Assembly (NCBI GenBank): GCA_012932865.1
Contig: SAXG01000023.1
Coordinates: forward strand, 499,559-563,558
DNA length: 64,000 bases
From: Amylostereum areolatum
Taxonomy: Eukaryota; Basidiomycota; Agaricomycetes; Russulales; Stereaceae
Reading direction: 5' to 3'
Position 1 is the stretch's first letter. Every line of letters starts with the position of its first letter. Both the position numbers and the translations under genes were made by a program. Shown piece after piece: positions 28,991-54,950 of the stretch. Under the pieces are notes generated by a model. That model did not search any database. It saw only the letters and a list, made by a program, of their open reading frames with translations, and was not told the DNA's origin.

Positions 28991-29492
28991 TGTTACAACT
29001 CCAATAAGGTTACTCCTTTTTCCCTCCTTATCGGAAGGACATTGCTAAATGACGGATTACGACATGTGGCCCCAGTTCGTAACCGTCTCGACGACGCGAC
29101 CACAACGGTGCCACAGATTGTACACCGTCTCAACGGCATAGCCACGACGGTGCCACAGTCTCGTTCTGTAGATACTTGATACAAACGTCGCTCAATGTAC
29201 ATATGTTTACTCGACCTCTTTCTTATAAAAGGGGCTCAACGAACGAGCTATTCCCCAGCTGTTCTCTTTGTAATACAGGACTGTTCTAAATAGAACCTCC
29301 TTTAAAAAGCTATAAAGAGAGACCAAAGTAACTAAGTCGAAAGCTCGCCTAAGTCTTCCGTGAAGACTTACTGCTCGCTTATCGACCTCCACCTTCGCAT
29401 AAACGAGACGTCTGGATCACCTGATCCCACTTCTCACACGTACGAGTACTGTAGCCTGAGCCGCTTGTACGTGATAAGGACCGTCCTTAACA
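28991..29492 (+). repeat. 5' LTR of C1 (type 1)
   Basis: 502 bp, TGTTACAACT ... CCTTAACA. Its U3 resembles the LTR at 44174-44713, not the one at 38615. TATAAAAG at 29224-29231. The R-start word here is AGCTGTTCT, one base short of AGCTCGTTCT in the other LTRs. Confidence 0.9.
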
Positions 29493-34500: not shown

Positions 34501-35454
34501 ATCTGCGAAAGCCTCGGAGTTATCTCGTCGCTCAGTACAGCGTATCATCCCCAAACGGATGGCGAAACAGAAAGAGTGAATCAAGAATTAGAACAATATC
34601 TTCGAGCATTCTGCAACGGAGATCAAACGAATTGGGCAAAACTTCTACCAAAAGCAGAATTTGCACACAATGTAAGACAACATTCAGCTACGAAAACCTC
34701 CCCATTTGAACTCCTACATGGGTATCAACCGGTTTTTAACCCGACAATACCAACCGATCCGCGAATACCGACGGCCGAAGAAAGAATAAAGAACTTTAAA
34801 GACGCATGGAACAACGCAGAAGCAAGTCTGGAAATAGCTGCCAAACTGATGAAAATGCAGCACGATCAAACGCTCACACTGTGAGATCAACTCAAACAGG
34901 GTGACCAAGTATGGTTAGACGGAAAAAATCTTAACACGGTATACCCGAAAACTAAACTAGCACCAAAGCGATTCGGCCCATTCAAAATCGAAAAAGTAAT
35001 AGGACCAGTAACCTATCGCTTAGAACTACCGGCAAAGTGGAAGATACATCCGGTATTTCACGCGGCACTATTAATTCCGTTCAAAGAAACAGAACAATAT
35101 GGAGAAGCTTACGAAAAACCGCCTCCGGAACTAGTAAACGATGAAGAACTCTACGAACTGGAAACAATAATAGCCTCGAAACTAGACAAACGATATTCCG
35201 AACCGTTACATTACTTCGTAAAATGGAAAGGATACCCCGACTCCGGTAACACATGGGAACCAGCATCTAATCTCGAAGGATCAAAAGATGCGATCGCAGA
35301 GTTCCATCGTAATAACCCCAAGGCACCGAAGTTACCACCACAGCCAATCAAAGATACCAACACAGAAGCCACTGATCGCGACGAAACCGACGCAACGCAG
35401 CGAGAACGAAGACCAACAAGACGAAAGAAACGCAAGACGAAAGTAAGACATTAG
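31563..35454 (+). pseudogene. pol of C1 (several single-base indels)
   Basis: Protease-RT-RNase H-integrase-chromodomain, as in C2. Homopolymer indels near 31785, 32696, 32815, 32950, 33195, 33628 and 33735 break it into pieces. The TGA at 34882-34884 in the integrase C-terminal part is shared with C2. After it the frame continues through a chromodomain to TAG 35452-35454. Confidence 0.88.
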
Positions 35455-35536
35455 TGAGACTCAACGGCATTCAGGCGAATGCACTGCCAACAAGGGGGGG
35501 ATAAAAACCCTACAGGTTCAACAAGACAGATCACCA

Positions 35537-37543
35537 ATGTCCACCACCCCGAACGCAACCAACATCTCCTCTACCAATCAGACCGTCTCAACCAACAATG
35601 TCGAACGCATCCGCCTCGTCTGCAACAAAGCACACCACACTCAACAGGAACGCACTCTCTGTGGAGACTGCTTCATCGCTCGATCGGCAGCAATCTTCGC
35701 AATTAAGTCAGTACCTCCTCCGTCTAGGTCAGGACCAGACGGAAGAACAGGGGGTAAGCTGATTAGAAGCATACAGAAGAACCCTAACTGAAGCACCCGG
35801 ATTCCTCACAGGTGCCAATGCAATTCCCGTGGTCCGGAGCGACGAAGGTCCCAACACCCGATTCCCCGATACTCGAGAATCAAATAGCCCACATGATAGC
35901 CGGAGTAGCGATCGAGCAGGCCAGGCAGCGGATCGACGACCTCAGGAGGGAGTCGGCCGACGTCCAGGGCATCCTGGAAGACCACAACAAGATGCTCGAC
36001 GAAGAACTCCACCAGCTGGACTTGAGGTACCTGACGCTCTCGACCGAAATGGAGGAACGAGAGGTCAAGCTCCTTCGACGATTCAGGAAGCTAGCGCAGC
36101 GGCTATACTCAACGTCGCAGAACTCCGAAAGTTCCTCACTGAAGTCGGACTCCGAGTCAACTGGCTCAACTGGGAAAGACATACCTTCCGTGCCGCCTAC
36201 GAAGGAGAAATCCTCCGAAGACGAATGGAAACTACCGGAGTTCCCCATATGTCGCCACGCGAAGGCCCCGACATCGACCTCATCTTCCATGGACATCACA
36301 TCTCCCCGGGCTATACTGTTCGACCCGATCCCATCGCACCCGCCCTCACCAGACCCCCGTTCCTTCCTAACGCCCCTCCACGACCCGTCACCGCCCCCAC
36401 GCCACCAGGATCCTTACCCATCCCCGGCATCACCCAGATTAACCCCGTCCAGCCTCCCGTCGCTAGAAACGGATTACCCGAAGAGCAGTTCGGACAGCCC
36501 CTGCCAAGAGAGCTATCGGGACAGTCCCTGGTCCTTCCAGAGCCCAGACAACCGACCGGACGACCGGCCAGCAGTCCGCGACCGGTACCTAGGACACCTC
36601 CTCGGCTGTCCGCCGTGTCTAGACCGCCAACTCCATTCCCACTATCTGCTAGCGACGCTCCCATGCCGTGGCACGGAAACCCTGCCCCCTATCCCTCATT
36701 CCTACGTCCGCACCCCGACCACGCTCGAGATCCCGTCACCCAGGATCCCCGAGTCACCGCACAGCGACGTAAACATGATTCTGTCGACCCCGACGGAAGA
36801 CCGTTCAAGCGGATCAGAGAGTTCAGACTCCCCGATGCATCGGGTGAGGAAGAACTTCAAGGAACTCAAGAAGATAGTCGATCGGATGATGGAAGACCGC
36901 GCTCGCCGGAGACAGGAACTCAACCTAACGGACGAGTCGGACAGTTCAGCGGACGAATCGGACAGCTCGGCGGACAAATCGGAGAAGGACAACAGGACGA
37001 AGGAAGTAGCCGAGAATCCCTCGGACCCATGGAGCGACGAACCAACCACGTGGACGCAAGAGAAGTGGGACGCGATTCCCTCGAAGCCGCGGAAACACTG
37101 CTGGAAATGCGGCAAGCGAGGCCATCTCCGCCGAGATTGCCCCCGTCGCAAGGGCGCTCCCCCTCACTTCCCCCGATCTCGGTCCTGCGATCCCCTCCGA
37201 CCACAGACTCCTCTTCCTCGCCCTCGCCCGGACCGTCCGGATATCAGTTACGGTCCAGGAACACTGATGTCCCACCCCCACCTCCGACGTACCGACGCTA
37301 CCGCCCCGCGCCCACAGGCAGCTTCTGGGATTCCTCACGCGACGCGAGAGCCTGACGCACGAAGCCGCCCAACACGCCACTGAGCAGTGGCTGTATTGGG
37401 AGGACGCAATGCTCCGCACTCAACGAGAACCCCCCTCACGCTTCAATCACTCATGGCGCGTCGACGATCTCTTCTGGAAGGAAGCAGATTGGGACTTGCA
37501 GGAAGCGGAGGAGTCGAAGGATCACTGGCCGGAGCCCTGGTAA
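35537..37543 (+). CDS. C1 accessory gene 1: spliced coiled-coil / CCHC zinc-knuckle protein with overlapping second frame
   Basis: Lies between pol and the 3' LTR, the env position. Exon 1 starts at ATG 35537 (MSTTPNATNISS) and contains a Cys/His cluster (RLVCNKAHHTQQERTLCGDC). An intron is strongly suggested: branch site CCCTAACTG at about 35783 and acceptor CCTCACAG ending at 35811. Two donors exist: GTACCT (35711), which joins to frame 1, and GTAAGC (35754), which joins to frame 2. Frame 1 encodes a coiled coil (IEQARQRIDDLRRESADVQG, about 35900-36100), a Ser/Pro linker, a basic helix (KNFKELKKIVDRMMEDRARR) and the zinc knuckle CWKCGKRGHLRRDC at about 37100-37141. Frame 2 is open over the same 1.5 kb and contains VAELRKFLTEVGLRVNWLNW and an NLS-like RRKHDSVDPDGRPFKRIRE. 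In C1 an extra C near 37310 breaks frame 1; C2 is intact. Function unknown. Confidence 0.6.
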
Positions 37544-37639
37544 GCGCGCGGACAGACTTCACCCATCATACGCACTCGGACTATTTCTCCCATCATCCCG
37601 CCTTTACGATTTCTCCTTACGATACTCCTCGGACTGATC

Positions 37640-37780
37640 ATGGACTGCGCCCTCATCCGCACGCATATTTTCCTCGGACTTCTCTACTATACCGGTTTCT
37701 ATCGCTATGAGGAAGGCGAGACGCTTGATATTCTCTCCGCGACGCGCTGGACGCGTCGCCTGCTTACGACTCAGTTTTGA
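37640..37780 (+). CDS. C1 accessory small hydrophobic ORF (46 codons)
   Basis: ATG at 37640, TGA at 37778-37780. The product starts MDCALIRTHIFLGLLYYTGF and has one hydrophobic stretch. The frame is open upstream from a TAA that overlaps a donor-like GGTAAGC at the end of accessory gene 1, so it could be a 3' exon. The copy in C2 is identical but lies in the homogenised core, so identity says nothing about selection. Confidence 0.25.
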   Translation: MDCALIRTHIFLGLLYYTGFYRYEEGETLDILSATRWTRRLLTTQF

Positions 37781-37926
37781 TTATGTACGAATCATCGCTT
37801 ACGATTGCTGGCAATGATTACATCATTGCCCCTCCGCATCGTAAGGATAAAAGGGAAAGCTACAAAGACCACAACACCCTCAGACATCGTCTAAACAAAC
37901 CCACTCGCACCACCCACACCAACCAA

Positions 37927-38310
37927 ATGTCTTCCACCCTCACCTCCTCATCGCGCAACCTCTCCACCACCGACCACACTCCCCCTACCACTCCTCCTCC
38001 CTCGCCCGTCCTCTCGCGCACTCCCACGCCCGACCCACAAGACGAAGAACTCCTTCGTCATCTCAAAAGAGTCACGGAACTCCTAAGCCGTCCGGACGTC
38101 GCTCGCGCCATGAAAAGGCCGAGAAGTCTAGACGAAGAAGCCATGCGGGAGTCGAAAGGGAAATGCGGCATTAGAGGGGTATTCCGGAAGCACGGCCCCC
38201 GGTTCAGAAGCCCGGACCACGCGACGACGGCGAGAATAGGGCATCGGCTAGGGTCTCCCACGATGGACGAGGAGGACGTAAAAGTAGTAGAGGCGTTACT
38301 GAAGCGGTAG
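37927..38310 (+). CDS. C1 accessory gene 2: 127-residue basic protein
   Basis: ATG 37927 (MSSTLTSSSRNLSTTDH), TAG at 38308-38310. Thr/Pro-rich N-terminus, then a helical charged part (DEELLRHLKRVTELLSRPDV) and a basic Arg/Lys/His-rich C-terminus. No family is recognised. Intact in both C copies. The frame is open 50 codons further upstream with another ATG (37783). Confidence 0.5.
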   Translation: MSSTLTSSSRNLSTTDHTPPTTPPPSPVLSRTPTPDPQDEELLRHLKRVTELLSRPDVARAMKRPRSLDEEAMRESKGKCGIRGVFRKHGPRFRSPDHATTARIGHRLGSPTMDEEDVKVVEALLKR

Positions 38311-38384
38311 AATAGAATTCTATCGCTCAATTCCGGATAAGGATAAAAGGAGTGAACATCAAAACATGAGGACTCAGAAGCGTG

Positions 38385-38639
38385 ATGCAGCCCACTCAGT
38401 CGCCCGATCTCGTGATTTTCAATACGCCTACTCCACGCTGGCTCATCACCGTCATCAGCATCATCGTAGGACTTACGATCCTCACCTTCCTCGCATCAAC
38501 CATATTCCTTCTCCAATGGCGAAGAGCGAGCGACCGACAACACGTTCAAGACATCCCGCTAGAACCACTTCGGTTCAGGAATCTACGAGACGTAGATTCT
38601 AGAGAGGGGGATAGTGTTACAACTCGTTCAAGCTCGTAA
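38385..38639 (+). CDS. C1 accessory gene 3: single-pass membrane protein
   Basis: ATG 38385; the frame runs through the polypurine tract and ends at TAA 38637-38639, inside the 3' LTR. The product begins MQPTQSPDLVIFNTPTPRW, followed by a hydrophobic helix (LITVISIIVGLTILTFLAS and on) and a basic QWRRASDRQH, then PLEPLRFRNL. It is a typical one-helix membrane protein with a short N-terminal ectodomain. In the stretch where C1 and C2 differ (38474 on) I count nine synonymous and two amino-acid-changing codons over the protein part, which suggests selection on the protein. Position and topology recall an env or viroporin-like product, but no homology is claimed. Confidence 0.6.
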   Translation: MQPTQSPDLVIFNTPTPRWLITVISIIVGLTILTFLASTIFLLQWRRASDRQHVQDIPLEPLRFRNLRDVDSREGDSVTTRSSS

Positions 38640-39098
38640 CCGTCCCGACGACATAGCCACGACCGCGCCACAGCTCGTCGGCATCTCGACAACACAGCTC
38701 CGACAGTGCCACAGTTCGTCGACATGTCGACAACACAGCTACGACCGTGCCACAGTCGCGTCCCCGTAGATACTTGATACGATCGTTGCCTTATGTACAT
38801 TTATTTACTCGACCTCCTTTCATATAAAAGGAGGCTCAACGAACGAGCTATTCCTCAGCTCGTTCTCTTTGTAAATACAGGACTGTTCTAACTAAAGAAC
38901 CTCCTCTTAAGTATACTAAAGAGAGCCCAAAGTAACTAAGTCGAAAGCTCGCCTAAGTCTTCCGCGAAGACTTACTGCCTAGCTTACCGACCTCAACCTT
39001 CGTATAAACGAGACGTCTGGATCGCCTGATCCCACCTCTCATCTACACAAATACTGTAGCCTGAGCCGCTTGTCACGTGATAAGGACCGTCCTTAACA
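38615..39098 (+). repeat. 3' LTR of C1 (type 2)
   Basis: 484 bp, TGTTACAACTCG ... CCTTAACA, preceded by the polypurine tract AGAGAGGGGGATAG. Near-identical to 53852-54335. R-start AGCTCGTTCT at 38857-38866, about 35 bp after ATATAAAAG. Confidence 0.93.
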
Positions 39099-39103
39099 GT
39101 CGA

Positions 39104-44173: not shown

Positions 44174-44713
44174 TGTTAAGGACGGTCCTTATCACGTGAC
44201 AAGCGGCTCAGGCTACAGTATTTGTGTAGATGAGAGGTGGGATCAGGCGATCCAGACGTCTCGTTTATACGAAGGTTGAGGTCGGTAAGCTAGGCAGTAA
44301 GTCTTCGCAGAAGACTTAGGCGAGCTTTCGACTTAGTTACTTTGGGCTCTCTTTAGTATACTTAAGAGGAGGTTCTTTAGTTAGAACAGTCCTGTATTTA
44401 CAAAGAGAACGAGCTGAGGAATGGCTCGTTCGATGAGCCTCCTTTTATAAGAAAGGAGGTCGAGTAAATATATGTACATTGAGCGACGGTCGCATCAAGT
44501 ATCTACGGGGATGAGACTGTGGCACCGTCGCGGCTGTGCCGTTGAGACGGTGACGATCTGTGGCACTGTCGTCGGGACGGTGACGATCTGTGGCACTGTC
44601 GTCGTCGCGTCGTTGAGACGGTTACGAACTGGGGCACAGTCGTAATCCGTCGTTTAGCGACGTCCTTCCTAATAAGGTAATGGAAAATGAAGTACCTTGG
44701 ACAAGTTGTAACA
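44174..44713 (-). repeat. 3' LTR of C2 (type 1)
   Basis: 540 bp. Its U3 contains tandem copies of a GACGGTGACGATCTGTGGCACTG-like word (on the plus strand near 44545-44610). Resembles the LTR at 28991. Confidence 0.9.
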
Positions 44714-44943
44714 CTATCCCCCTCTCTAGAATCTACGTCTCGTAGATTCCTGAATCGAAGCGGTTCTAGAGGGATTTCTTGAACATGCTGTCGATCGCTC
44801 GCTCTTCGCCATTGGAGGAGGAATATTGTTGATGCGAGGAATATGAGGATTGTAAGTCCTACGATGATGCTGATGACGGTGATGAGCCAGCGTGGAGTAG
44901 GCGTATTGAAAATCACGAGATCGGGCGACTGAGTGGGCTGCAT
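44503..44943 (-). CDS. C2 accessory gene 3: single-pass membrane protein
   Basis: Same protein as at 38385, starting MQPTQSPDLVIFNTPTPRW with helix LITVISIIVGLTILIFLAST and QWRRASDRQH. It differs at T-to-I in the helix and D-to-E after it. The conserved part ends at the LTR (about residue 73). In this copy the frame stays open further into the diverged LTR, so the last 70 or so residues are probably not meaningful. Confidence 0.6.
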   Translation of the reverse strand: MQPTQSPDLVIFNTPTPRWLITVISIIVGLTILIFLASTIFLLQWRRASDRQHVQEIPLEPLRFRNLRDVDSREGDSVTTCPRYFIFHYLIRKDVAKRRITTVPQFVTVSTTRRRQCHRSSPSRRQCHRSSPSQRHSRDGATVSSP

Positions 44944-45017
44944 CACGCTTCTGAGTCCTCATGTTTTGATGTTCACTCCTTTTATCCTTATCCGGAATTG
45001 AGCGATAGAATTCTATT

Positions 45018-45401
45018 CTACCGCTTCAGTAACGCCTCTACTACTTTTACGTCCTCCTCGTCCATCGTGGGAGACCCTAGCCGATGCCCTATTCTCGCCG
45101 TCGTCGCGTGGTCCGGGCTTCTGAACCGGGGGCCGTGCTTCCGGAATACCCCTCTAATGCCGCATTTCCCTTTCGACTCCCGCATGGCTTCTTCGTCTAG
45201 ACTTCTCGGCCTTTTCATGGCGCGAGCGACGTCCGGACGGCTTAGGAGTTCCGTGACTCTTTTGAGATGACGAAGGAGTTCTTCGTCTTGTGGGTCGGGC
45301 GTGGGAGTGCGCGAGAGGACGGGCGAGGGAGGAGGAGTGGTAGGGGGAGTGTGGTCGGTGGTGGAGAGGTTGCGCGATGAGGAGGTGAGGGTGGAAGACA
45401 T
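45018..45401 (-). CDS. C2 accessory gene 2: 127-residue basic protein
   Basis: Identical in product to 37927-38310 (MSSTLTSSSRNLSTTDH). Open frame continues 50 codons upstream to an ATG near 45545. Confidence 0.5.
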   Translation of the reverse strand: MSSTLTSSSRNLSTTDHTPPTTPPPSPVLSRTPTPDPQDEELLRHLKRVTELLSRPDVARAMKRPRSLDEEAMRESKGKCGIRGVFRKHGPRFRSPDHATTARIGHRLGSPTMDEEDVKVVEALLKR

Positions 45402-45404
45402 TTG

Positions 45405-45784
45405 GTTGGTGTGGGTGGTGCGAGTGGGTTTGTTTAGACGATGTCTGAGGGTGTTGTGGTCTTTGTAGCTTTCCCTTTTATCCTTACGATGCGGAGGGGC
45501 AATGATGTAATCATTGCCAGCAATCGTAAGCGATGATTCGTACATAATCAAAACTGAGTCGTAAGCAGGCGACGCGTCCAGCGCGTCGCGGAGAGAATAT
45601 CAAGCGTCTCGCCTTCCTCATAGCGATAGAAACCGGTATAGTAGAGAAGTCCGAGGAAAATATGCGTGCGGATGAGGGCGCAGTCCATGATCAGTCCGAG
45701 GAGTATCGTAAGGAGAAATCGTAAAGGCGGGATGATGGGAGAAATAGTCCGAGTGCGTATGATGGGTGAAGTCTGTCCGCGCGC
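45405..45784 (-). other. spacer with hydrophobic small ORF and palindrome
   Basis: Mirror of 37544-37926 in C1. It holds the 46-codon hydrophobic frame and a palindromic segment around the repeated word CTTACGATTGC / GGCAATGATT. No other feature is seen. Confidence 0.4.
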
Positions 45785-47790
45785 TTACCAGGGCTCCGGC
45801 CAGTGATCCTTCGACTCCTCCGCTTCCTGCAAGTCCCAATCTGCTTCCTTCCAGAAGAGATCGTCGACGCGCCATGAGTGATTGAAGCGTGAGGGGGGTT
45901 CTCGTTGAGTGCGGAGCATTGCGTCCTCCCAATACAGCCACTGCTCAGTGGCGTGTTGGGCGGCTTCGTGCGTCAGGCTCTCGCGTCGCGTGAGGAATCC
46001 CAGAAGCTGCCTGTGGGCGCGGGCGGTAGCGTCGGTACGTCGGAGGTGGGGGTGGGACATCAGTGTTCCTGGACCGTAACTGATATCCGGACGGTCCGGG
46101 CGAGGGCGAGGAAGAGGAGTCTGTGGTCGGAGGGGATCGCAGGACCGAGATCGGGGGAAGTGAGGGGGAGCGCCCTTGCGACGGGGGCAATCTCGGCGGA
46201 GATGGCCTCGCTTGCCGCATTTCCAGCAGTGTTTCCGCGGCTTCGAGGGAATCGCGTCCCACTTCTCTTGCGTCCACGTGGTTGGTTCGTCGCTCCATGG
46301 GTCCGAGGGATTCTCGGCTACTTCCTTCGTCCTGTTGTCCTTCTCCGATTTGTCCGCCGAGCTGTCCGATTCGTCCGCTGAACTGTCCGACTCGTCCGTT
46401 AGGTTGAGTTCCTGTCTCCGGCGAGCGCGGTCTTCCATCATCCGATCGACTATCTTCTTGAGTTCCTTGAAGTTCTTCCTCACCCGATGCATCGGGGAGT
46501 CTGAACTCTCTGATCCGCTTGAACGGTCTTCCGTCGGGGTCGACAGAATCATGTTTACGTCGCTGTGCGGTGACTCGGGGATCCTGGGTGACGGGATCTC
46601 GAGCGTGGTCGGGGTGCGGACGTAGGAATGAGGGATAGGGGGCAGGGTTTCCGTGCCACGGCATGGGAGCGTCGCTAGCAGATAGTGGGAATGGAGTTGG
46701 CGGTCTAGACACGGCGGACAGCCGAGGAGGTGTCCTAGGTACCGGTCGCGGACTGCTGGCCGGTCGTCCGGTCGGTTGTCTGGGCTCTGGAAGGACCAGG
46801 GACTGTCCCGATAGCTCTCTTGGCAGGGGCTGTCCGAACTGCTCTTCGGGTAATCCGTTTCTAGCGACGGGAGGCTGGACGGGGTTAATCTGGGTGATGC
46901 CGGGGATGGGTAAGGATCCTGGTGGCGTGGGGGCGGTGACGGGTCGTGGAGGGGCGTTAGGAAGGAACGGGGGTCTGGTGAGGGCGGGTGCGATGGGATC
47001 GGGTCGAACAGTATAGCCCGGGGAGATGTGATGTCCATGGAAGATGAGGTCGATGTCGGGGCCTTCGCGTGGCGACATATGGGGAACTCCGGTAGTTTCC
47101 ATTCGTCTTCGGAGGATTTCTCCTTCGTAGGCGGCACGGAAGGTATGTCTTTCCCAGTTGAGCCAGTTGACTCGGAGTCCGACTTCAGTGAGGAACTTTC
47201 GGAGTTCTGCGACGTTGAGTATAGCCGCTGCGCTAGCTTCCTGAATCGTCGAAGGAGCTTGACCTCTCGTTCCTCCATTTCGGTCGAGAGCGTCAGGTAC
47301 CTCAAGTCCAGCTGGTGGAGTTCTTCGTCGAGCATCTTGTTGTGGTCTTCCAGGATGCCCTGGACGTCGGCCGACTCCCTCCTGAGGTCGTCGATCCGCT
47401 GCCTGGCCTGCTCGATCGCTACTCCGGCTATCATGTGGGCTATTTGATTCTCGAGTATCGGGGAATCGGGTGTTGGGACCTTCGTCGCTCCGGACCACGG
47501 GAATTGCATTGGCACCTGTGAGGAATCCGGGTGCTTCAGTTAGGGTTCTTCTGTATGCTTCTAATCAGCTTACCCCCTGTTCTTCCGTCTGGTCCTGACC
47601 TAGACGGAGGAGGTACTGACTTAATTGCGAAGATTGCTGCCGATCGAGCGATGAAGCAGTCTCCACAGAGAGTGCGTTCCTGTTGAGTGTGGTGTGCTTT
47701 GTTGCAGACGAGGCGGATGCGTTCGACATTGTTGGTTGAGACGGTCTGATTGGTAGAGGAGATGTTGGTTGCGTTCGGGGTGGTGGACAT
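45785..47790 (-). CDS. C2 accessory gene 1: spliced coiled-coil / zinc-knuckle protein, both frames intact
   Basis: Exon 1 from ATG 47788-47790 (MSTTPNATNISS). Intron with alternative donors as in C1 and an acceptor just before 47515. Frame 1 then runs 576 codons from 47515 to TAA at 45785 without interruption: coiled coil, Ser/Pro linker, zinc knuckle CWKCGKRGHLRRDC, and a C-terminal part (ARAHRQLLGFLTRRESLTHE, WYWED-like Trp-rich end, PEPW). Frame 2 is open for 517 codons at 45945-47498. Codon third positions look coding for frame 1 in the first 0.3 kb and last 0.7 kb, and for frame 2 in the middle (mirror of 36100-36810). So either dual coding or two compensating shifts in the family ancestor are possible. 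Confidence 0.6.
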
Positions 47791-47872
47791 TGGTGATCTG
47801 TCTTGTTGAACCTGTAGGGTTTTTATCCCCCCCTTGTTGGCAGTGCATTCGCCTGAATGCCGTTGAGTCTCA

Positions 47873-50800
47873 CTAATGTCTTACTTTCGTCTTGCGTTTC
47901 TTTCGTCTTGTTGGTCTTCGTTCTCGCTGCGTTGCGTCGGTTTCGTCGCGATCAGTGGCTTCTGTGTTGGTATCTTTGATTGGCTGTGGTGGTAACTTCG
48001 GTGCCTTGGGGTTATTACGATGGAACTCTGCGATCGCATCTTTTGATCCTTCGAGATTAGATGCTGGTTCCCATGTGTTACCGGAGTCGGGGTATCCTTT
48101 CCATTTTACGAAGTAATGTAACGGTTCGGAATATCGTTTGTCTAGTTTCGAGGCTATTATTGTTTCCAGTTCGTAGAGTTCTTCATCGTTTACTAGTTCC
48201 GGAGGCGGTTTTTCGTAAGCTTCTCCATATTGTTCTGTTTCTTTGAACGGAATTAATAGTGCCGCGTGAAATACCGGATGTATCTTCCACTTTGCCGGTA
48301 GTTCTAAGCGATAGGTTACTGGTCCTATTACTTTTTCGATTTTGAATGGGCCGAATCGCTTTGGTGCTAGTTTAGTTTTCGGGTATACCGTGTTAAGATT
48401 TTTTCCGTCTAACCATACTTGGTCACCCTGTTTGAGTTGATCTCACAGTGTGAGCGTTTGATCGTGCTGCATTTTCATCAGTTTGGCAGCTATTTCCAGA
48501 CTTGCTTCTGCGTTGTTCCATGCGTCTTTAAAGTTCTTTATTCTTTCTTCGGCCGTCGGTATTCGCGGATCGGTTGGTATTGTCGGGTTAAAAACCGGTT
48601 GATACCCATGTAGGAGTTCAAATGGGGAGGTTTTCGTAGCTGAATGTTGTCTTACATTGTGTGCAAATTCTGCTTTTGGTAGAAGTTTTGCCCAATTCGT
48701 TTGATCTCCGTTGCAGAATGCTCGAAGATATTGTTCTAATTCTTGATTCACTCTTTCTGTTTCGCCATCCGTTTGGGGATGATACGCTGTACTGAGCGAC
48801 GAGATAACTCCGAGGCTTTCGCAGATGGATTGGAATACTTTGGATGCGAATTGAGGGCCTCTGTCCGATATCATTCTTTTCCATAGTCCAAATCGTCTGT
48901 AAACATTGTCGATCAGAAGATCAGCTGTTTCTTCTGCGTTGATCGTCTTTAGGCACGGCGTGAATACTGCGGTTTTAGTGAACCTGTCGACGACTACGTT
49001 GATCGAATCGAATCCGTTGGAGATCGGAAGGTCTGTAATAAAATCCGATGTGATCGTTTCCCATGGTCGTTCTGGTATTTCCGTAGGTTGTAATGGATGT
49101 TTTGCCGGATGTGTGACATTCTTCGTTGACTGGCATACGGGACATCCTTGAACATAACCTTTCACGAAGGAAATCATCTTTGGCCACCAAAAGTTTCTTT
49201 GTACCAGCTCTAGAGTTTTCATTTCGCCTGGATGTCCAATTGTTTCCAGATCATGATGCGACTTTAGGATCCTGCGTCTAAGTTCGAGATTCTGTGGCAC
49301 ATAGATCTTTCCTTTTCTGATGATCAGATCGTTCTCGAAGTTCCAATCTTCGATTCCTTTTGCGAGGGTGCGTGGTCCCGATCTTTTGATTGTCTCTAAC
49401 GCTGTCCAAACCTCATCATCTAGGTGTGAGAAGTTTCTTAGTTCTTTGAGAAGTTCTTTGTCTCCGACTGCTTCGACTGCTCCTCTTCCGGTGGCTCTAG
49501 TCCTGAAAACCGAAGGGTGAAGCAGGATGCGATCGTCGTTGTCTGGAATATCTTCCTTATGATCTGGTCTTCTAGAAAGTCCATCTGCCTTGTTTGTACT
49601 TCCTGGTTTGTGTACCAAGGTGTAGTCGAAACGGGACAGATACAAGCTCCATCGTGCTTGTCGTCGATTGAGTTTCTGAGCTGTTGTGAAATATTCTAGA
49701 TTTTTATGATCTGTCCAGATTTCGACTTTGTGGTTCGCTCCTTCTAGATAGTGTCGCCAGTGTTCTAAGGCTTTCACTACTCCTAAGAGTTCTTTGTCGT
49801 ATATCTCGTAATTTTGTTCCGCGGGAGATAGTGATTTGGATAGGTACGCGACCGGATGCCATCTTTCGATCTCATCTGGCTGCGATAGGATGGCTCCGTA
49901 CGCAAAGTCGGAGGCGTCACTCTCTATGCGGAATGGTTTGTTTTCATCGGGCATGATTAAGATTGGGGACGATGTGAATTCTCGTTTCAGTCTTTCGAAG
50001 GTACGTTCACATTCGGCCATCCAGTTCCATTCGTGGTCTTTCTTTGTGAGCTGGAATAGGGGTCTGGCGATCTTGGAATAGTCTTTGATGAAGCGTCGAT
50101 AGAAATTTCCAAATCCGAGGAATGATTGGACTTCTTTTACTTTCCTTGGTGTGGGCCATTCGGCTAGTCCTTGGACTTTGACCGGATCCATCTGTACCTT
50201 GTTGTGCGTGATTATCACGCCTAGGTACTCGATCAATGGTTGTTCGAAGAAGCACTTCTCTGGTTTGAGGAATAGATCGTTCCGTTCTAGAAGTTGGAGG
50301 GCTTCTTTCATCAGTTTTCTATGTTCGTCGAGTGTTTCTGTAAATATCAGTATGTCATCCATATAGACCACTACTTTTCCGGTGTCTATTAATTCTTTGA
50401 ACAGTGCGTTCATCATTGCTTGGAATGTTGCGGGTGAGTTGGTTAGTCCGAAGAACATTACCATTGGTTCGAAAAGGCCTCTGTTTGTTTTGAACGCAGC
50501 TTTCCATTGATCTCCTTCTTTGATCCGAACATTGTTGTATCCCCATCGGAGATCGAGCTTTGAGAAGATCTTAGCGCCCTTTAATTTGTCGATGAGATCT
50601 GAGATGAGTGGTATCGGGTATTCATTTTTAACCGTGATCGAGTTAAGATAGCGATAGTCCTGTACTGGTCGAAGAGATCCGTCTTTCTTCTTGATAAAGA
50701 AGAAGGGCGATGATATCTCTGATTTTGATTCTCGGATGTACCCTTTTCGTAGATGCTCGTCTATGAATGTGTCCAGTTCCTTCCGTTCTGGTACCGTCAT

Positions 50801-51763: not shown

Positions 51764-53037
51764 CCCTGATTGTCTTTGAACATGTTGGCAGTGCGTGCGA
51801 ACGTTTCACTGTCCATCTTGTTCACAAGCTTGGTGATCTGATCAATCGGGGATTCTTCCTCTGTTAGATTCGCTGTTCGTGCATTGATCGTTGTTTGGGT
51901 ACGTTTCTCTGGGCAGTTCCTGGAGATGTGTCCTGGCTTTCGGCAATAGAAGCATGATCCTGATTTCTGGAGTTCGGTACGTTCTTGCGGGGTAAGTCGT
52001 CTGAAGTTTCGGTTATTGTTTCCGGTTTGAGCGGCCCTGGCGGTGGTAACGTTCCCTTTATTTCCGTTTCCTCTTCGGAATGGAACGTACGTCTGTGGTT
52101 TCTTGTATAGAAGGGTGAGATCACTCGTCGGGTTCATTGGTCTCGTATAATGTCGTTGGAATGCTTGAGCTTCTCGCCAGTTATTATCGATGCGCAGTGC
52201 GAGTTCATACCATTCGTCGATATCGTTCGAGATGTGATCTCTCTTGAATTGGTCGATCAATGCTTTATGATCGTAACCGGCTTCCATAGCATAGTCTCTA
52301 AAGACCGTGATGTAATCTTTGGTTTCCATAGTGCCTTGTTCCAGGCGCTGTATGTTGAATCTAGCGTCTCTTCCGGGGTCTATTTCTCCAAAGGTTTCTA
52401 AGAAGTAGTCACGGAATCCTGTCCATGGAAGATACCTTTCTGGATCTATGCCGCGCTCTCGTGTCTTATCGATCTTGCTTATTAAGAGGGACGCCCAGTG
52501 AAGGGCGGGTCCATCTGTGAGATGCGAGAGTACAAAGGTTATCTTACGCATGTTGGTTTTGTATGCGTTGGGGAATGCTATGAAGCGAAGTACGCATTGT
52601 TCAATGAATTTTGCTGCCTTCGCTCGGTCTCTTCCGTCGTACACTCCTAGCGCGTTCAGTTTGAATCCTTTGTCTTTGTCTTCGGGTTTAGATCCAATCG
52701 TTCCTGTTCCTCCCGGTGGTGAATGCCATGGTGGGTGTCTCGGTCCTTCCGGAAGATCTGCGGTTGCTCCTCTTCCGAATACATAGTCCTGAACCTTTTT
52801 TCCTTTCTCATTATCAGCTGATCGGTCAGAAGGCGATGATGGTTGCGGTGATGGTGCTTTCCATCCTATTGGTTCGCCTAAACCGAATCCTATGGGGAAT
52901 CGAGCCTTATGTCCCGGTTTCGCGGGATCGGCTGGTGTTGGAGTTGCAGGCGTCTGGAGCGGTATACTAGTTTCTCCAGGGGGGACATTGCTAAGTGTGG
53001 CGGCGGGGTTGGGTATCGAGGTGGTAGTGTCTCCCAT
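51757..53037 (-). CDS. gag of C2
   Basis: 426 codons from ATG 53035-53037 (MGDTTTSIPNPAATLSNV) to TGA. Pro-rich start, capsid-like region (GRDRAKAAKFIEQCVLRFIA, LPWTGFRDYFLETFGEIDPG, MEAGYDHKALIDQFKRDH) and one CCHC knuckle CFYCRKPGHISRNC near 51930-51970. The same frame stays open about 255 codons upstream to the LTR border and encodes a tyrosine/tryptophan-rich, protein-like sequence (HHWTFDPYNLIFYHDGAFTA, YAYQWNPPIYRYNLPPAAEY), yet contains no ATG, TTG, CTG or GTG that I can see. Start choice is therefore uncertain. Confidence 0.9.
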   Translation of the reverse strand: MGDTTTSIPNPAATLSNVPPGETSIPLQTPATPTPADPAKPGHKARFPIGFGLGEPIGWKAPSPQPSSPSDRSADNEKGKKVQDYVFGRGATADLPEGPRHPPWHSPPGGTGTIGSKPEDKDKGFKLNALGVYDGRDRAKAAKFIEQCVLRFIAFPNAYKTNMRKITFVLSHLTDGPALHWASLLISKIDKTRERGIDPERYLPWTGFRDYFLETFGEIDPGRDARFNIQRLEQGTMETKDYITVFRDYAMEAGYDHKALIDQFKRDHISNDIDEWYELALRIDNNWREAQAFQRHYTRPMNPTSDLTLLYKKPQTYVPFRRGNGNKGNVTTARAAQTGNNNRNFRRLTPQERTELQKSGSCFYCRKPGHISRNCPEKRTQTTINARTANLTEEESPIDQITKLVNKMDSETFARTANMFKDNQGF

Positions 53038-53851
53038 TGTCGTGACGTTCTCTGGTCTTCCGAATAGATTCCCTTGTCTTCCTTTTCTGGTTTCGAAGAT
53101 ATCTTTGTCTGATTTAACTGATGGAGATCCTGTTGATTCTTCTGTATGTCTTTCCGTTTCTGTTGCGCTCGCTGGGCTGCCTTCTCGACTTCCTCCGGAA
53201 TCGGACTTAATTTGGGGGCTTGATACAGTTCTCTTAGGTTCTGGCGCGGTTTCTTCTGGAGGCTGTGCGCTTGCTGCGGGTTCTTGAGGATGCTGGAGTT
53301 CGGTTTGAGGGTTCTGTGGTTCGGTTGTCGTGTCGGTTGTGTCGGTATCGGGATCAAATTCCCAGTAGTCCTTAATATTCCCGGTGTAAGGTTTCTCTTC
53401 GACTTTCTGTGCGTCCGGGTGTTTCCAGAGTTCTTCTGATGAGAGGGGCCCGATATGAGGTCTTGAATAATCTGGGCGCTTCCAATGTGAATTGTCGTAG
53501 CTTCCGTCTTCCTTTTCTCTTTTGGATCTATCCTTGAAGTATTCTGCTGCTGGGGGAAGGTTGTATCTGTATATAGGCGGGTTCCACTGGTATGCGTATG
53601 TCCCTTTGCTTTCTTTTGCGGTGAATGCTCCGTCGTGATAAAAGATGAGATTATAGGGATCAAATGTCCAGTGATGATTTTCTTTTCCGTTGGGAAATTC
53701 TCGACTACAATCTGATTGGGGATAAGGGATTTCGAAGTCTGATGGTCTTTTCTCAGCGGGTTGTTCCGCTGGCTCCGTGGTGGGTGTTTTTTCGTTTGAC
53801 GCCCTGCGCCAAACTGTAGGGTGAGCTAGTGTAGAGGAGAGCTCGTTCTAG
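53038..53851 (-). other. ATG-free leader of C2
   Basis: No CAT on the plus strand over 814 bp, so no sense ATG in any frame between the LTR and the gag ATG. Antisense ATGs are frequent here. Confidence 0.85.
53840..53849 (-). promoter_or_regulatory. self-priming primer-binding site of C2
   Basis: Sense strand AGAACGAGCT, 2 nt after the 5' LTR, is the exact complement of AGCTCGTTCT in R (complement of 54084-54093), itself about 35 bp after the TATA box. No tRNA-like TGG follows the LTR directly. Confidence 0.7.
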
Positions 53852-54335
53852 TGTTAAGGACGGTCCTTATCACGTGACAAGCGGCTCAGGCTACAGTATT
53901 TGTGTAGATGAGAGGTGGGATCAGGCGATCCAGACGTCTCGTTTATACGAAGGTTGAGGTCGGTAAGCTAGGCAGTAAGTCTTCGCGGAAGACTTAGGTG
54001 AGCTTTCGACTTAGTTACTTTGGGCTCTCTTTAGTATACTTAAGAGGAGGTTCTTTAGTTAGAACAGTCCTGTATTTACAAAGAGAACGAGCTGAGGAAT
54101 AGCTCGTTCGTTGAGCCTCCTTTTATATGAAAGGAGGTCGAGTAAATAAATGTACATAAGGCAACGATCGTATCAAGTATCTACGGGGACGCGACTGTGG
54201 CACGGTCGTAGCTGTGTTGTCGACATGTCGACGAACTGTGGCACTGTCGGAGCTGTGTTGTCGAGATGCCGACGAGCTGTGGCGCGGTCGTGGCTATGTC
54301 GTCGGGACGGTTACGAGCTTGAACGAGTTGTAACA
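53852..54335 (-). repeat. 5' LTR of C2 (type 2)
   Basis: 484 bp, near-identical to 38615-39098 in inverse orientation. Confidence 0.93.
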
Positions 54336-54950
54336 TCGACACTGTTCGCCGTCGGAGACAAGGTCTGGCTCGAAGGCAAAAACCTGAAGACAACGAGGCC
54401 GAAAGCTAAGCTTGCTGCCAAACGATTTGGACCCTTCGAGATCGTTGACATCATTAGCCCAGTGAACTACCGCCTGAAGCTGCCGAAGACGTGGAGAATC
54501 CACCCAGTCTTCCATGCTTCGCTGCTCACCGCGTACAAGGAGACAACGGCACACGGTCCAAACTATGAACAACCGCCGCCTGACCTTGTTGATGACGAAG
54601 AAGAATATTACGTTGAAGACATCATCGACTCGAAGCCGACCCGCAACAAGAAAGGCATACAATACCTCGTCAAGTGGGCAGGCTATCCTGACTCTGAGAA
54701 TACCTGGCTCCCTCGCTCCTCGCTCTCAAAAGTCACCGACATGATCGACGCCTTCCACAAACGCCATCCAAATGCGCCCCGCCCTGTGCATTCCCTCGGC
54801 ATCTCCTTTGACGATTTCCTCGCATCTACCCTTGCAGATGACATTGCGCTCCAGGCGAAAGCGCGTCTTAAAGGGGGGGTAATGTCACGAATCGCTCCAT
54901 TTCTCTCTTCGTTTGCAGACCTCGTACACGCGACGTGTCACGGCACATGA
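54336..54950 (+). pseudogene. 3' end of B2 pol: integrase C-terminus and chromodomain
   Basis: Begins TCGAC (the target duplication) and continues the integrase C-terminal module (FAVGDKVWLEGKNLKTTRPK, KRFGPFEIVD) and chromodomain (YVEDIIDSKPTRNKKGIQYL, WAGYPDSENTW). The frame passes the polypurine tract (TTAAAGGGGGGGTAA) and ends at TGA 54948-54950, inside the LTR. The LTR-encoded tail (MSRIAPFLSSFADLVHATCH) is the same in B1. Confidence 0.9.

What the first reader, a model, noticed from the sequence alone, without database searches (positions are those of the whole stretch)
35455..38614. Chromovirus with a 3.1-kb accessory gene block between pol and the 3' LTR
Family C carries, after the chromodomain stop, a probably spliced coiled-coil/zinc-knuckle gene, a 127-codon ORF, a small hydrophobic ORF and a single-pass membrane protein; the same set is present in C2 (44714-47872). 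Typical fungal chromoviruses go from pol directly to the polypurine tract, as A and B do here. A second CCHC protein besides Gag, and a membrane protein in the env position, would make this element unusually virus-like.
Basis: partly seen in the sequence, partly recalled or inferred. Interest (0 to 1): 0.9.

Follow-up and report, generated by a model that had tools for sequence, protein, structure and literature searches.

The report
Retrotransposon with two overlapping accessory genes
A high-copy retrotransposon, probably fungal, carries extra genes after its polymerase gene, and one stretch of about 1,700 bases appears to encode two different long proteins at once, an economy usually seen in viruses.

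Summary
The accessory block is real and belongs to the family: at least 136 of 150 scored pol ends in this genome run into it, the other 14 unexamined. The 127-codon ORF (pN/pS 0.24) and the single-pass membrane protein (0.35) are conserved. The small hydrophobic ORF is not supported: its ATG is missing in 32 of 44 copies. The zinc-knuckle gene (B, 628 aa) shares a 58-nt intron with a second ORF in another frame (A, 595 aa), overlapping for about 570 codons; 27 of 44 copies keep both long. Synonymous shuffles of B never clear frame A (at least 5 stops), and changes that would stop A are avoided: 1 of 974 cells against 271 of 882 controls. Selection alternates between the frames. Two copies lack exactly the intron, so it is spliced. 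The start codons lie 61 nt apart, weak context first, strong second: leaky scanning is likely but not shown. Protein functions are guesses. Extra ORFs after pol and overlapping genes are each known; my searches listed no report of the combination.

The parts
34885..35454 (+). C-terminal end of pol: SH3-like integrase tail and chromodomain
   Evidence: Pfam PF24626 5.5e-19 and PF00385 2.3e-15. pN/pS 0.06 and 0.13 in the last two 300-nt windows.
35492..35501 (+). polypurine stretch just after pol, where a neighbouring chromovirus has its polypurine tract; possible old or second tract
   Evidence: Read, compared with 54870-54879 of another element. Purine-rich but variable: identical to C1 in 26 of 44 readable copies. 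35455-35544 is less variable than 37526-37885 (12 of 90 columns against 27-49 of 90). Function inferred.
35537..35753 (+). ORF A exon 1 (MSTTPNATNISS...); ORF B starts inside it at 35598
   Evidence: A start ATG in 44 of 44 readable copies with position -3 always C. Spliced reading.
35598..35753 (+). ORF B exon 1 (MSNASASS...), +1 frame relative to A
   Evidence: B start ATG in 44 of 44 readable copies with position -3 always a purine; no ATG between the two starts in the window copy.
35754..35811 (+). 58-nt GT-AG intron shared by A and B
   Evidence: GT..AG in 45 of 46 aligned copies, 58 nt in 44 and 59 nt in one; the remaining copy is L015, which lacks it exactly. Also exactly absent in L064.
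35812..37355 (+). ORF A exon 2 as it reads in C1 (counterpart in C2: 45945-47515, minus strand, ending REPDARSRPTRH)
   Evidence: No stop over the 573 codons shared with B in L010; synonymous shuffles of B give a mean of 14.7 stops, minimum 5 in 2000.
36084..36446 (+). conserved core of protein A
   Evidence: Frame A pN/pS 0.27 (0.18-0.40) while frame B there is 0.95 (0.61-1.51). Protein alignment A1, 28 copies, 94% mean column identity.
35812..37383 (+). ORF B exon 2 as it reads in C1 (counterpart in C2: 45785-47515, minus strand, ending KDHWPEPW; in most copies it corresponds to the stretch up to 37543)
   Evidence: 75 places scored of 312 candidates, 80-100% identity, 65 of the 75 without an internal stop.
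37099..37140 (+). CCHC zinc knuckle of B
   Evidence: zf-CCHC E 4.5e-05. Of 40 copies the Cys/Cys/His/Cys are kept in 39, 40, 40 and 40. Matches retroviral Gag/nucleocapsid knuckles in the PDB, best E 0.00076.
37255..37543 (+). C-terminal tail of B in most copies (in C1 it lies in another frame after the length difference near 37304)
   Evidence: pN/pS 0.11 (0.06-0.18), the lowest of the block's segments; alignment A2, 22 copies.
37927..38310 (+). 127-codon ORF (ORF4), no known family
   Evidence: 150 places scored of 228 candidates, 143 without an internal stop. ATG in 42 of 43 readable copies; pN/pS 0.24 (0.18-0.32), other two frames 1.60 and 1.27. No Pfam match at E 0.1.
38385..38639 (+). 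single-pass membrane protein frame; in C1 it ends inside the 3' LTR
   Evidence: 150 places scored of 201 candidates, 137 without an internal stop. pN/pS 0.35 (0.25-0.48), other two frames 0.93 and 1.43. Frame passes the polypurine tract into the LTR in 15 of 19 copies read.
38601..38614 (+). 3' polypurine tract
   Evidence: Read; conserved in the alignment.
38615..39103 (+). 3' LTR of C1
   Evidence: Repeat arms and comparison of the LTRs.
44714..47872 (-). same block in C2, with both A and B frames uninterrupted

Best explanation
Family C is a high-copy chromovirus whose region between pol and the 3' LTR is a conserved accessory module. Its first gene is a dual-coding gene. One spliced RNA (58-nt intron) carries two ORFs in different frames that overlap for about 570 codons: A (595 aa, a conserved core of about 120 residues in a proline-rich chain) and B (628 aa, an apparent coiled coil, a serine/proline-rich middle, a CCHC knuckle and a highly conserved tail). 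Supported by sequence tests: both frames are kept open by selection, the intron is real, and in the segments tested one frame is strict where the other is loose. Inferred: ribosomes make A from the first AUG (weak context) and B from the next AUG 61 nt downstream (strong context) by leaky scanning. Inferred and weaker: B is an RNA-binding protein that self-associates and works alongside Gag, A is its regulatory or structural partner, the 127-codon protein is a further factor, and the small membrane protein anchors or moves particles or alters a membrane. Downstream ORFs probably need shorter RNAs; none was seen.
For: Permutation test in 5 copies, chosen because both frames are open in them: A span 0 stops against means of 14.7-15.9 and minima of 5 (7 in L054) in 2000 synonymous shuffles of B each; B within A also 0 against minima of 2; the third frame has 23-25 stops. 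Stop avoidance in A at B third positions: 1 of 974 cells against 271 of 882 (control), with no avoidance in the third frame, 618 of 1206 against 237 of 1049. Changes seen in at least 2 of 40 copies: 0 that stop A against 14.0 expected, 3 that stop B against 13.7. pN/pS switches between frames. Both ORFs long in 27 of 44 copies (with L015 corrected). Of 12 kinds of coding indel shared by two or more copies, 11 are multiples of 3, against 12 of 26 kinds seen once. Two exact intron losses. Start codons fixed, -3 positions C and purine, in 44 of 44.
Against: No transcript or protein data. Frame A is short (under 550 codons) in 15 of 44 copies and frame B (under 560) in 8 (L015 corrected), so A may be the less essential. 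If changes seen in a single copy are included, stops in A are only halved (15 against 29.0 expected; B 4 against 24.2), which fits decay after insertion but also weaker selection on A. Outside the core and a late segment A's amino acids drift (pN/pS 1.00 and 0.98; changes that alter both proteins are not rarer than expected in 36445-37164, 97 against 80). All copies are from one genome and related, so counts are not independent. AlphaFold2 gave no confident fold for either conserved part (mean pLDDT 43 and 50). No homologue names a function. An ATG at 35479 in the third frame would interfere with scanning if the RNA starts upstream of it.
Confidence: 0.78

Rival explanations
1. Only B is a gene; frame A is open by codon bias or by recent common descent of the copies.
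For: All copies come from one genome, about 85-100% alike; frame A drifts in amino acids over more than half of its length and is short more often than B (15 against 8 of 44).
Against: Synonymous shuffling that keeps B's codon usage gives at least 5 stops in A in each of 5 copies. Stop-making changes are avoided in A but not in the third frame. In the core A is constrained (0.27) and B is not (0.95), the reverse of what B alone predicts.
Confidence: 0.04
2. One mosaic protein is made by two programmed frameshifts: B frame, then A frame over 36085-36444, then back to B.
For: Constraint switches B to A to B along the gene.
Against: Both frames avoid stops outside the segment where each is strict: A at 35815-36084 and 36445-37254, B at 36085-36444 (the numbers for B there are small, 0 against 4.7 expected). 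A late A segment at 37164-37256 is constrained again (0.38, 0.18-0.81). A has its own invariant start codon. Slippery sites were not searched for.
Confidence: 0.08
3. A and B are made from two different RNAs (two transcription starts or alternative splicing of the first exon) rather than from one RNA by leaky scanning.
For: A TATA-like GATAAAAA, 30 nt before the A start, is kept in 43 of 44 readable copies, so a start site close to, or between, the two ATGs is possible.
Against: Weak-then-strong start contexts with no ATG between them fit scanning without extra assumptions; both frames run across the same splice.
Confidence: 0.25
4. The membrane protein is a true envelope protein and the element is an errantivirus-like virus.
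For: Env position and one hydrophobic stretch; a conserved frame (pN/pS 0.35) found in 150 scored places.
Against: Only about 83-140 aa, no ectodomain by eye, no envelope family in Pfam at E 1.
Confidence: 0.05
5. The block is a captured host or mycovirus gene cluster.
For: B resembles Gag only at the knuckle; the block has its own intron.
Against: No match in the protein set or IMG/VR. Whether every hit lies inside an element was not checked one by one.
Confidence: 0.3

Closest known systems
Additional ORFs (aORFs) between pol and the 3' LTR in plant LTR retrotransposons: Athila, Bagy2, Grande, RIRE2, Retand (PMC7264820, first of three parts read)
   Same: ORFs after pol, present in most copies, some with transmembrane segments or splicing, function unknown.
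   Different: Here a chromovirus with at least four accessory ORFs, two of them in the same nucleotides.
Fungal Gypsy elements with an 'add. ORF' (Novikova et al. 2010, PMC2864245, section 5 read, figure not seen); fungal LTR surveys (PMC3248453 and PMC3411680, passages only)
   Same: Fungal chromoviruses; an extra ORF of unknown function is named in the figure legend of the first.
   Different: That section gives one or two ORFs as the majority, and none of the passages seen mentions an overlapping pair.
ORF3 of bdelloid rotifer LTR elements (PMC5408684, passages)
   Same: Non-envelope accessory ORF, said to be expressed from spliced messages.
   Different: There the ORFs carry DEDDy-like or GDSL-like domains; the word 'overlap' does not occur in the paper.
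Tymovirus movement protein nested in replicase (PMC8227390, passages; its two close start codons are recalled)
   Same: Very long same-strand overlap.
   Different: RNA virus, no intron, and one partner is an enzyme.
Retroviral tat/rev and nef (recalled)
   Same: Overlapping accessory genes after pol; nef, like the membrane protein here, runs into the 3' LTR.
   Different: No homology found; here the overlap is much longer.

Membership tests
Chromovirus (chromodomain-bearing Ty3/Gypsy) | pol order protease, RT, RNase H, integrase, with a chromodomain at the end | tested here: met
   RVP_2, RVT_1, RT_RNaseH, H2C2, rve in order; Chromo PF00385 in the next frame segment. In C1 and C2 a stop lies between the two parts; it is absent in most other copies read.
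Chromovirus (chromodomain-bearing Ty3/Gypsy) | LTRs and CCHC Gag | tested here: met
   LTR arms; Gag CCHC read by eye. Not all fungal Gypsy Gags have a CCHC (PMC2864245, section 5).
Same-strand overlapping gene pair | both frames stop-free beyond chance | tested here: met
   five copies chosen because both frames are open.
Same-strand overlapping gene pair | purifying selection on both frames | tested here: met
   for A strong in the core, elsewhere mainly against stops.
Same-strand overlapping gene pair | both proteins are made | not testable with these tools
   No RNA or protein data for this genome.
Retroviral-type envelope gene | long ectodomain with signal peptide, fusion segment and membrane anchor | tested here: not met
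   Frame of about 83-140 aa with one hydrophobic stretch near residues 19-45, read by eye.
Retroviral-type envelope gene | expressed from a spliced subgenomic RNA | tested here: inconclusive
   The only intron shown is the 58-nt one. One copy with a gag-to-pol deletion (L019) joins at a 5-nt repeat, and no placement of the joint gives GT-AG.
Gag duplication | sequence similarity to the element's own Gag beyond the knuckle | tested here: not met
   BLASTP: only the knuckle is significant, 8 of 18 residues, E 0.001; all other matches E above 1.

The most novel reading that the evidence does not exclude
A chromovirus that has evolved a retrovirus-like regulatory region of its own: a long dual-coding spliced gene, a further small protein, and a membrane protein that reads into the 3' LTR, with an old polypurine tract left between pol and the new region. 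It would be an independent step from retrotransposon towards virus in a fungus.
Probability: 0.35. Interest if true: 0.92.

Novelty: new variant of a known kind. Interest (0 to 1): 0.8.

Why it matters
Long overlapping genes are largely a viral trait (general knowledge). Here a pair of about 570 codons sits in an LTR retrotransposon with over a hundred copies in one genome. That gives an unusual natural data set for how selection is shared between two frames, and a place to ask whether retrotransposons gain accessory genes the way retroviruses did. It also warns that annotating the longer ORF alone would hide a conserved protein.

Tried and rejected
Subgenomic splice from the gag side: L019 lacks most of gag-pol, but the joint lies at a 5-nt repeat and no placement gives GT-AG; rejected as splice evidence. 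Separate promoters before the 127-codon ORF and the membrane ORF: the motif GGATAAAAGG occurs twice in only 9 of 46 copies; left open, weak. A donor-like GTAAG overlaps B's stop codon and is kept in 42 of 44 readable copies; no acceptor was tested systematically. B as a copy of Gag: rejected. Homologues by protein search: none in three searches; in the first, only the 7,999 candidates sharing most words were scored, and it is not known how many fungal proteins that set holds. IMG/VR: none. Structure prediction of A core and B tail: low confidence, so no fold search was made. Alternative frame inside gag of C2 (311 codons): 2.5% of shuffles reach it, not followed.

Errors found on the way: two ORFs were read from a start one or two bases off; one search is the corrected version, and the 'tail' residue list printed is in the wrong frame and not used. 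In one search copy L015 is misread because of one aligned base; its lengths are (595 and 628). One search's count of B missed a subclade whose start differs from the search word; one search replaces it. pol values include two copies (L019, L023) badly aligned because of a deletion and an insertion; no recount without them was made. Membrane-protein lengths are cut at about 139 aa by the stretch read (this affects L010). In one search one B position was mistyped by 300 (C136); the match holds with the right number. The counts 'A at least 550, B at least 560 codons' include copies, C1 type, whose ends are changed by a late frame change.
Full report
What was checked. The window lies in an unnamed 57.1-Mb assembly of 182 contigs. 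The host was not identified.

The block. DNA search with 35455-38614 scored 40 places (of 221 candidates), 35 of them over the full 3160 nt, at 88-100% identity. From the other side, 150 places (of 1021 candidates) were scored for the chromodomain end of pol. For 127 of them an accessory gene lies within 4.5 kb downstream on the same strand (with incomplete lists). Of the 23 left, one has the block. Eight more were fetched and all eight run from pol into the block; one of these (L059) has lost the rest of it and one (L057) is interrupted by other sequence. So 136 of 150 have it and 14 were not examined. Among the copies examined none goes from pol directly to the LTR.

Two genes in one. In C2 the block holds two long frames: B, 584 codons in exon 2, and A, 539 codons. 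In C1 a 1-nt length difference near 37304, against 30 of 31 other copies, changes both ends. Read across a 58-nt GT-AG intron at 35754-35811, A starts at 35537 and reaches 595 aa, and B starts at 35598 and reaches 628 aa. The intron is exactly absent from L015 and from L064, which carries the 12-nt insertion of another subclade. Loss of exactly this stretch twice is best explained by reverse transcription of spliced RNA. Of 46 aligned copies 45 have GT..AG there (44 of 58 nt, one of 59), and the remaining one is L015.

Is frame A real? Synonymous shuffling of B within the A span gave no shuffle with fewer than 5 stops in A in any of five copies (2000 shuffles each; means 14.7-15.9; observed 0). 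The five were chosen because both frames are open in them. The third frame has 23-25 stops, more than its shuffles give on average (16.0-18.9). Across 40 non-redundant copies, B-silent C/T positions that would stop A (next bases AA or AG) carry T in 1 of 974 cells, against 271 of 882 where no stop would result. At CpG-type positions it is 56 of 1131 against 144 of 860, and 46 of those 56 lie in 37255-37383, where A ends early in some copies. The same test on the third, non-coding frame shows no avoidance (618 of 1206 against 237 of 1049). Cells are not independent because copies are related. Counting each change once and taking those in at least 2 copies, 0 stop A against 14.0 expected and 3 stop B against 13.7; with single-copy changes included it is 15 against 29.0 and 4 against 24.2. 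Of 12 kinds of indel in 35537-37543 shared by two or more copies, 11 are multiples of 3; of 26 kinds seen once, 12 are.

How selection is shared. pN/pS with bootstrap over codons: 35815-36084 B 0.28, A 1.00; 36084-36446 A 0.27, B 0.95; 36445-37164 B 0.44, A 0.98; 37164-37256 A 0.38, B 0.66 (wide intervals); 37255-37540 B 0.11. In exon 1 both are near 0.5 with wide intervals. So frame A is strict in a core of about 120 codons and perhaps a short late segment, and elsewhere mostly just kept open. Of 44 copies with both start codons, 29 keep A for at least 550 codons, 36 keep B for at least 560, and 27 keep both (with L015 corrected).

How it is probably translated. The A ATG and the B ATG are present in 44 of 44 readable copies. 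Position -3 is C in 44 of 44 for A and a purine in 44 of 44 for B, with no ATG between them in the window copy. This is the pattern expected for leaky scanning; it is inference. A further ATG at 35479 lies upstream in the third frame, so where the RNA starts matters. A TATA-like GATAAAAA 30 nt before the A start is kept in 43 of 44.

The other ORFs. The 127-codon ORF was scored in 150 places (228 candidates), 143 without an internal stop, at 79-100%, pN/pS 0.24. The membrane protein was scored in 150 (201 candidates), 137 without an internal stop, at 63-100%, pN/pS 0.35. Its frame runs through the polypurine tract into the 3' LTR in 15 of 19 copies read (two ended before it and two were not found by the pattern). 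The hydrophobic ORF at 37640 is not supported.

Relatives. Three protein searches, two IMG/VR scans and the PDB gave nothing beyond the zinc knuckle. Ten literature searches were made. They show that extra ORFs after pol are well known in plants (PMC7264820, first of three parts read) and rotifers (PMC5408684, passages), and that an 'add. ORF' is named in a figure legend for fungal Gypsy elements (PMC2864245, section 5 read). No title or abstract beginning in the listings describes a long overlapping gene pair in a retrotransposon. The listings are capped and the library is open-access only, so this is no proof of absence.

Reading. The element is a chromovirus by tested features, with a conserved accessory module that may work like a retroviral regulatory region; no homology to one was found. 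What the proteins do is unknown. My guess for B (RNA-binding, self-associating, alongside Gag) rests on a conserved knuckle and a by-eye coiled coil. For A, the 127-aa protein and the membrane protein the guesses rest on position and conservation alone.

Noticed in passing
38615-39103, 53847-54335, 28991-29492, 44174-44713: C1's 3' LTR and C2's 5' LTR are 99.8% identical over 484 nt, while the two LTRs of C1 are 83.7% alike and those of C2 about 89%; the bodies are nearly identical and inverted. Recombination or gene conversion between the two is likely.
   Followed up: partly
34882-34884 and 48443-48445: pol of C1 and C2 is interrupted by an in-frame stop just before the chromodomain part, shared with one other copy (L017) of the 19 read; the other 16 do not have it there.
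   Followed up: partly
52890-53825 (minus): A 311-codon open frame overlaps the N-terminal part of gag in C2; 2.5% of codon shuffles reach that length. Possibly another overlapping ORF.
   Followed up: no
35492-35501: Polypurine stretch directly after pol resembles the polypurine tract of a neighbouring chromovirus (54870-54879), as if the block had been gained downstream of an old tract.
   Followed up: no
L024, L031, L038: Some copies match C1 in two pieces of different identity (for example 97.5% and 87.9%), suggesting recombination between subfamilies.
   Followed up: no
L019: Copy with gag joined to the end of pol at a 5-nt repeat; its accessory block is present with both frames long.
   Followed up: yes
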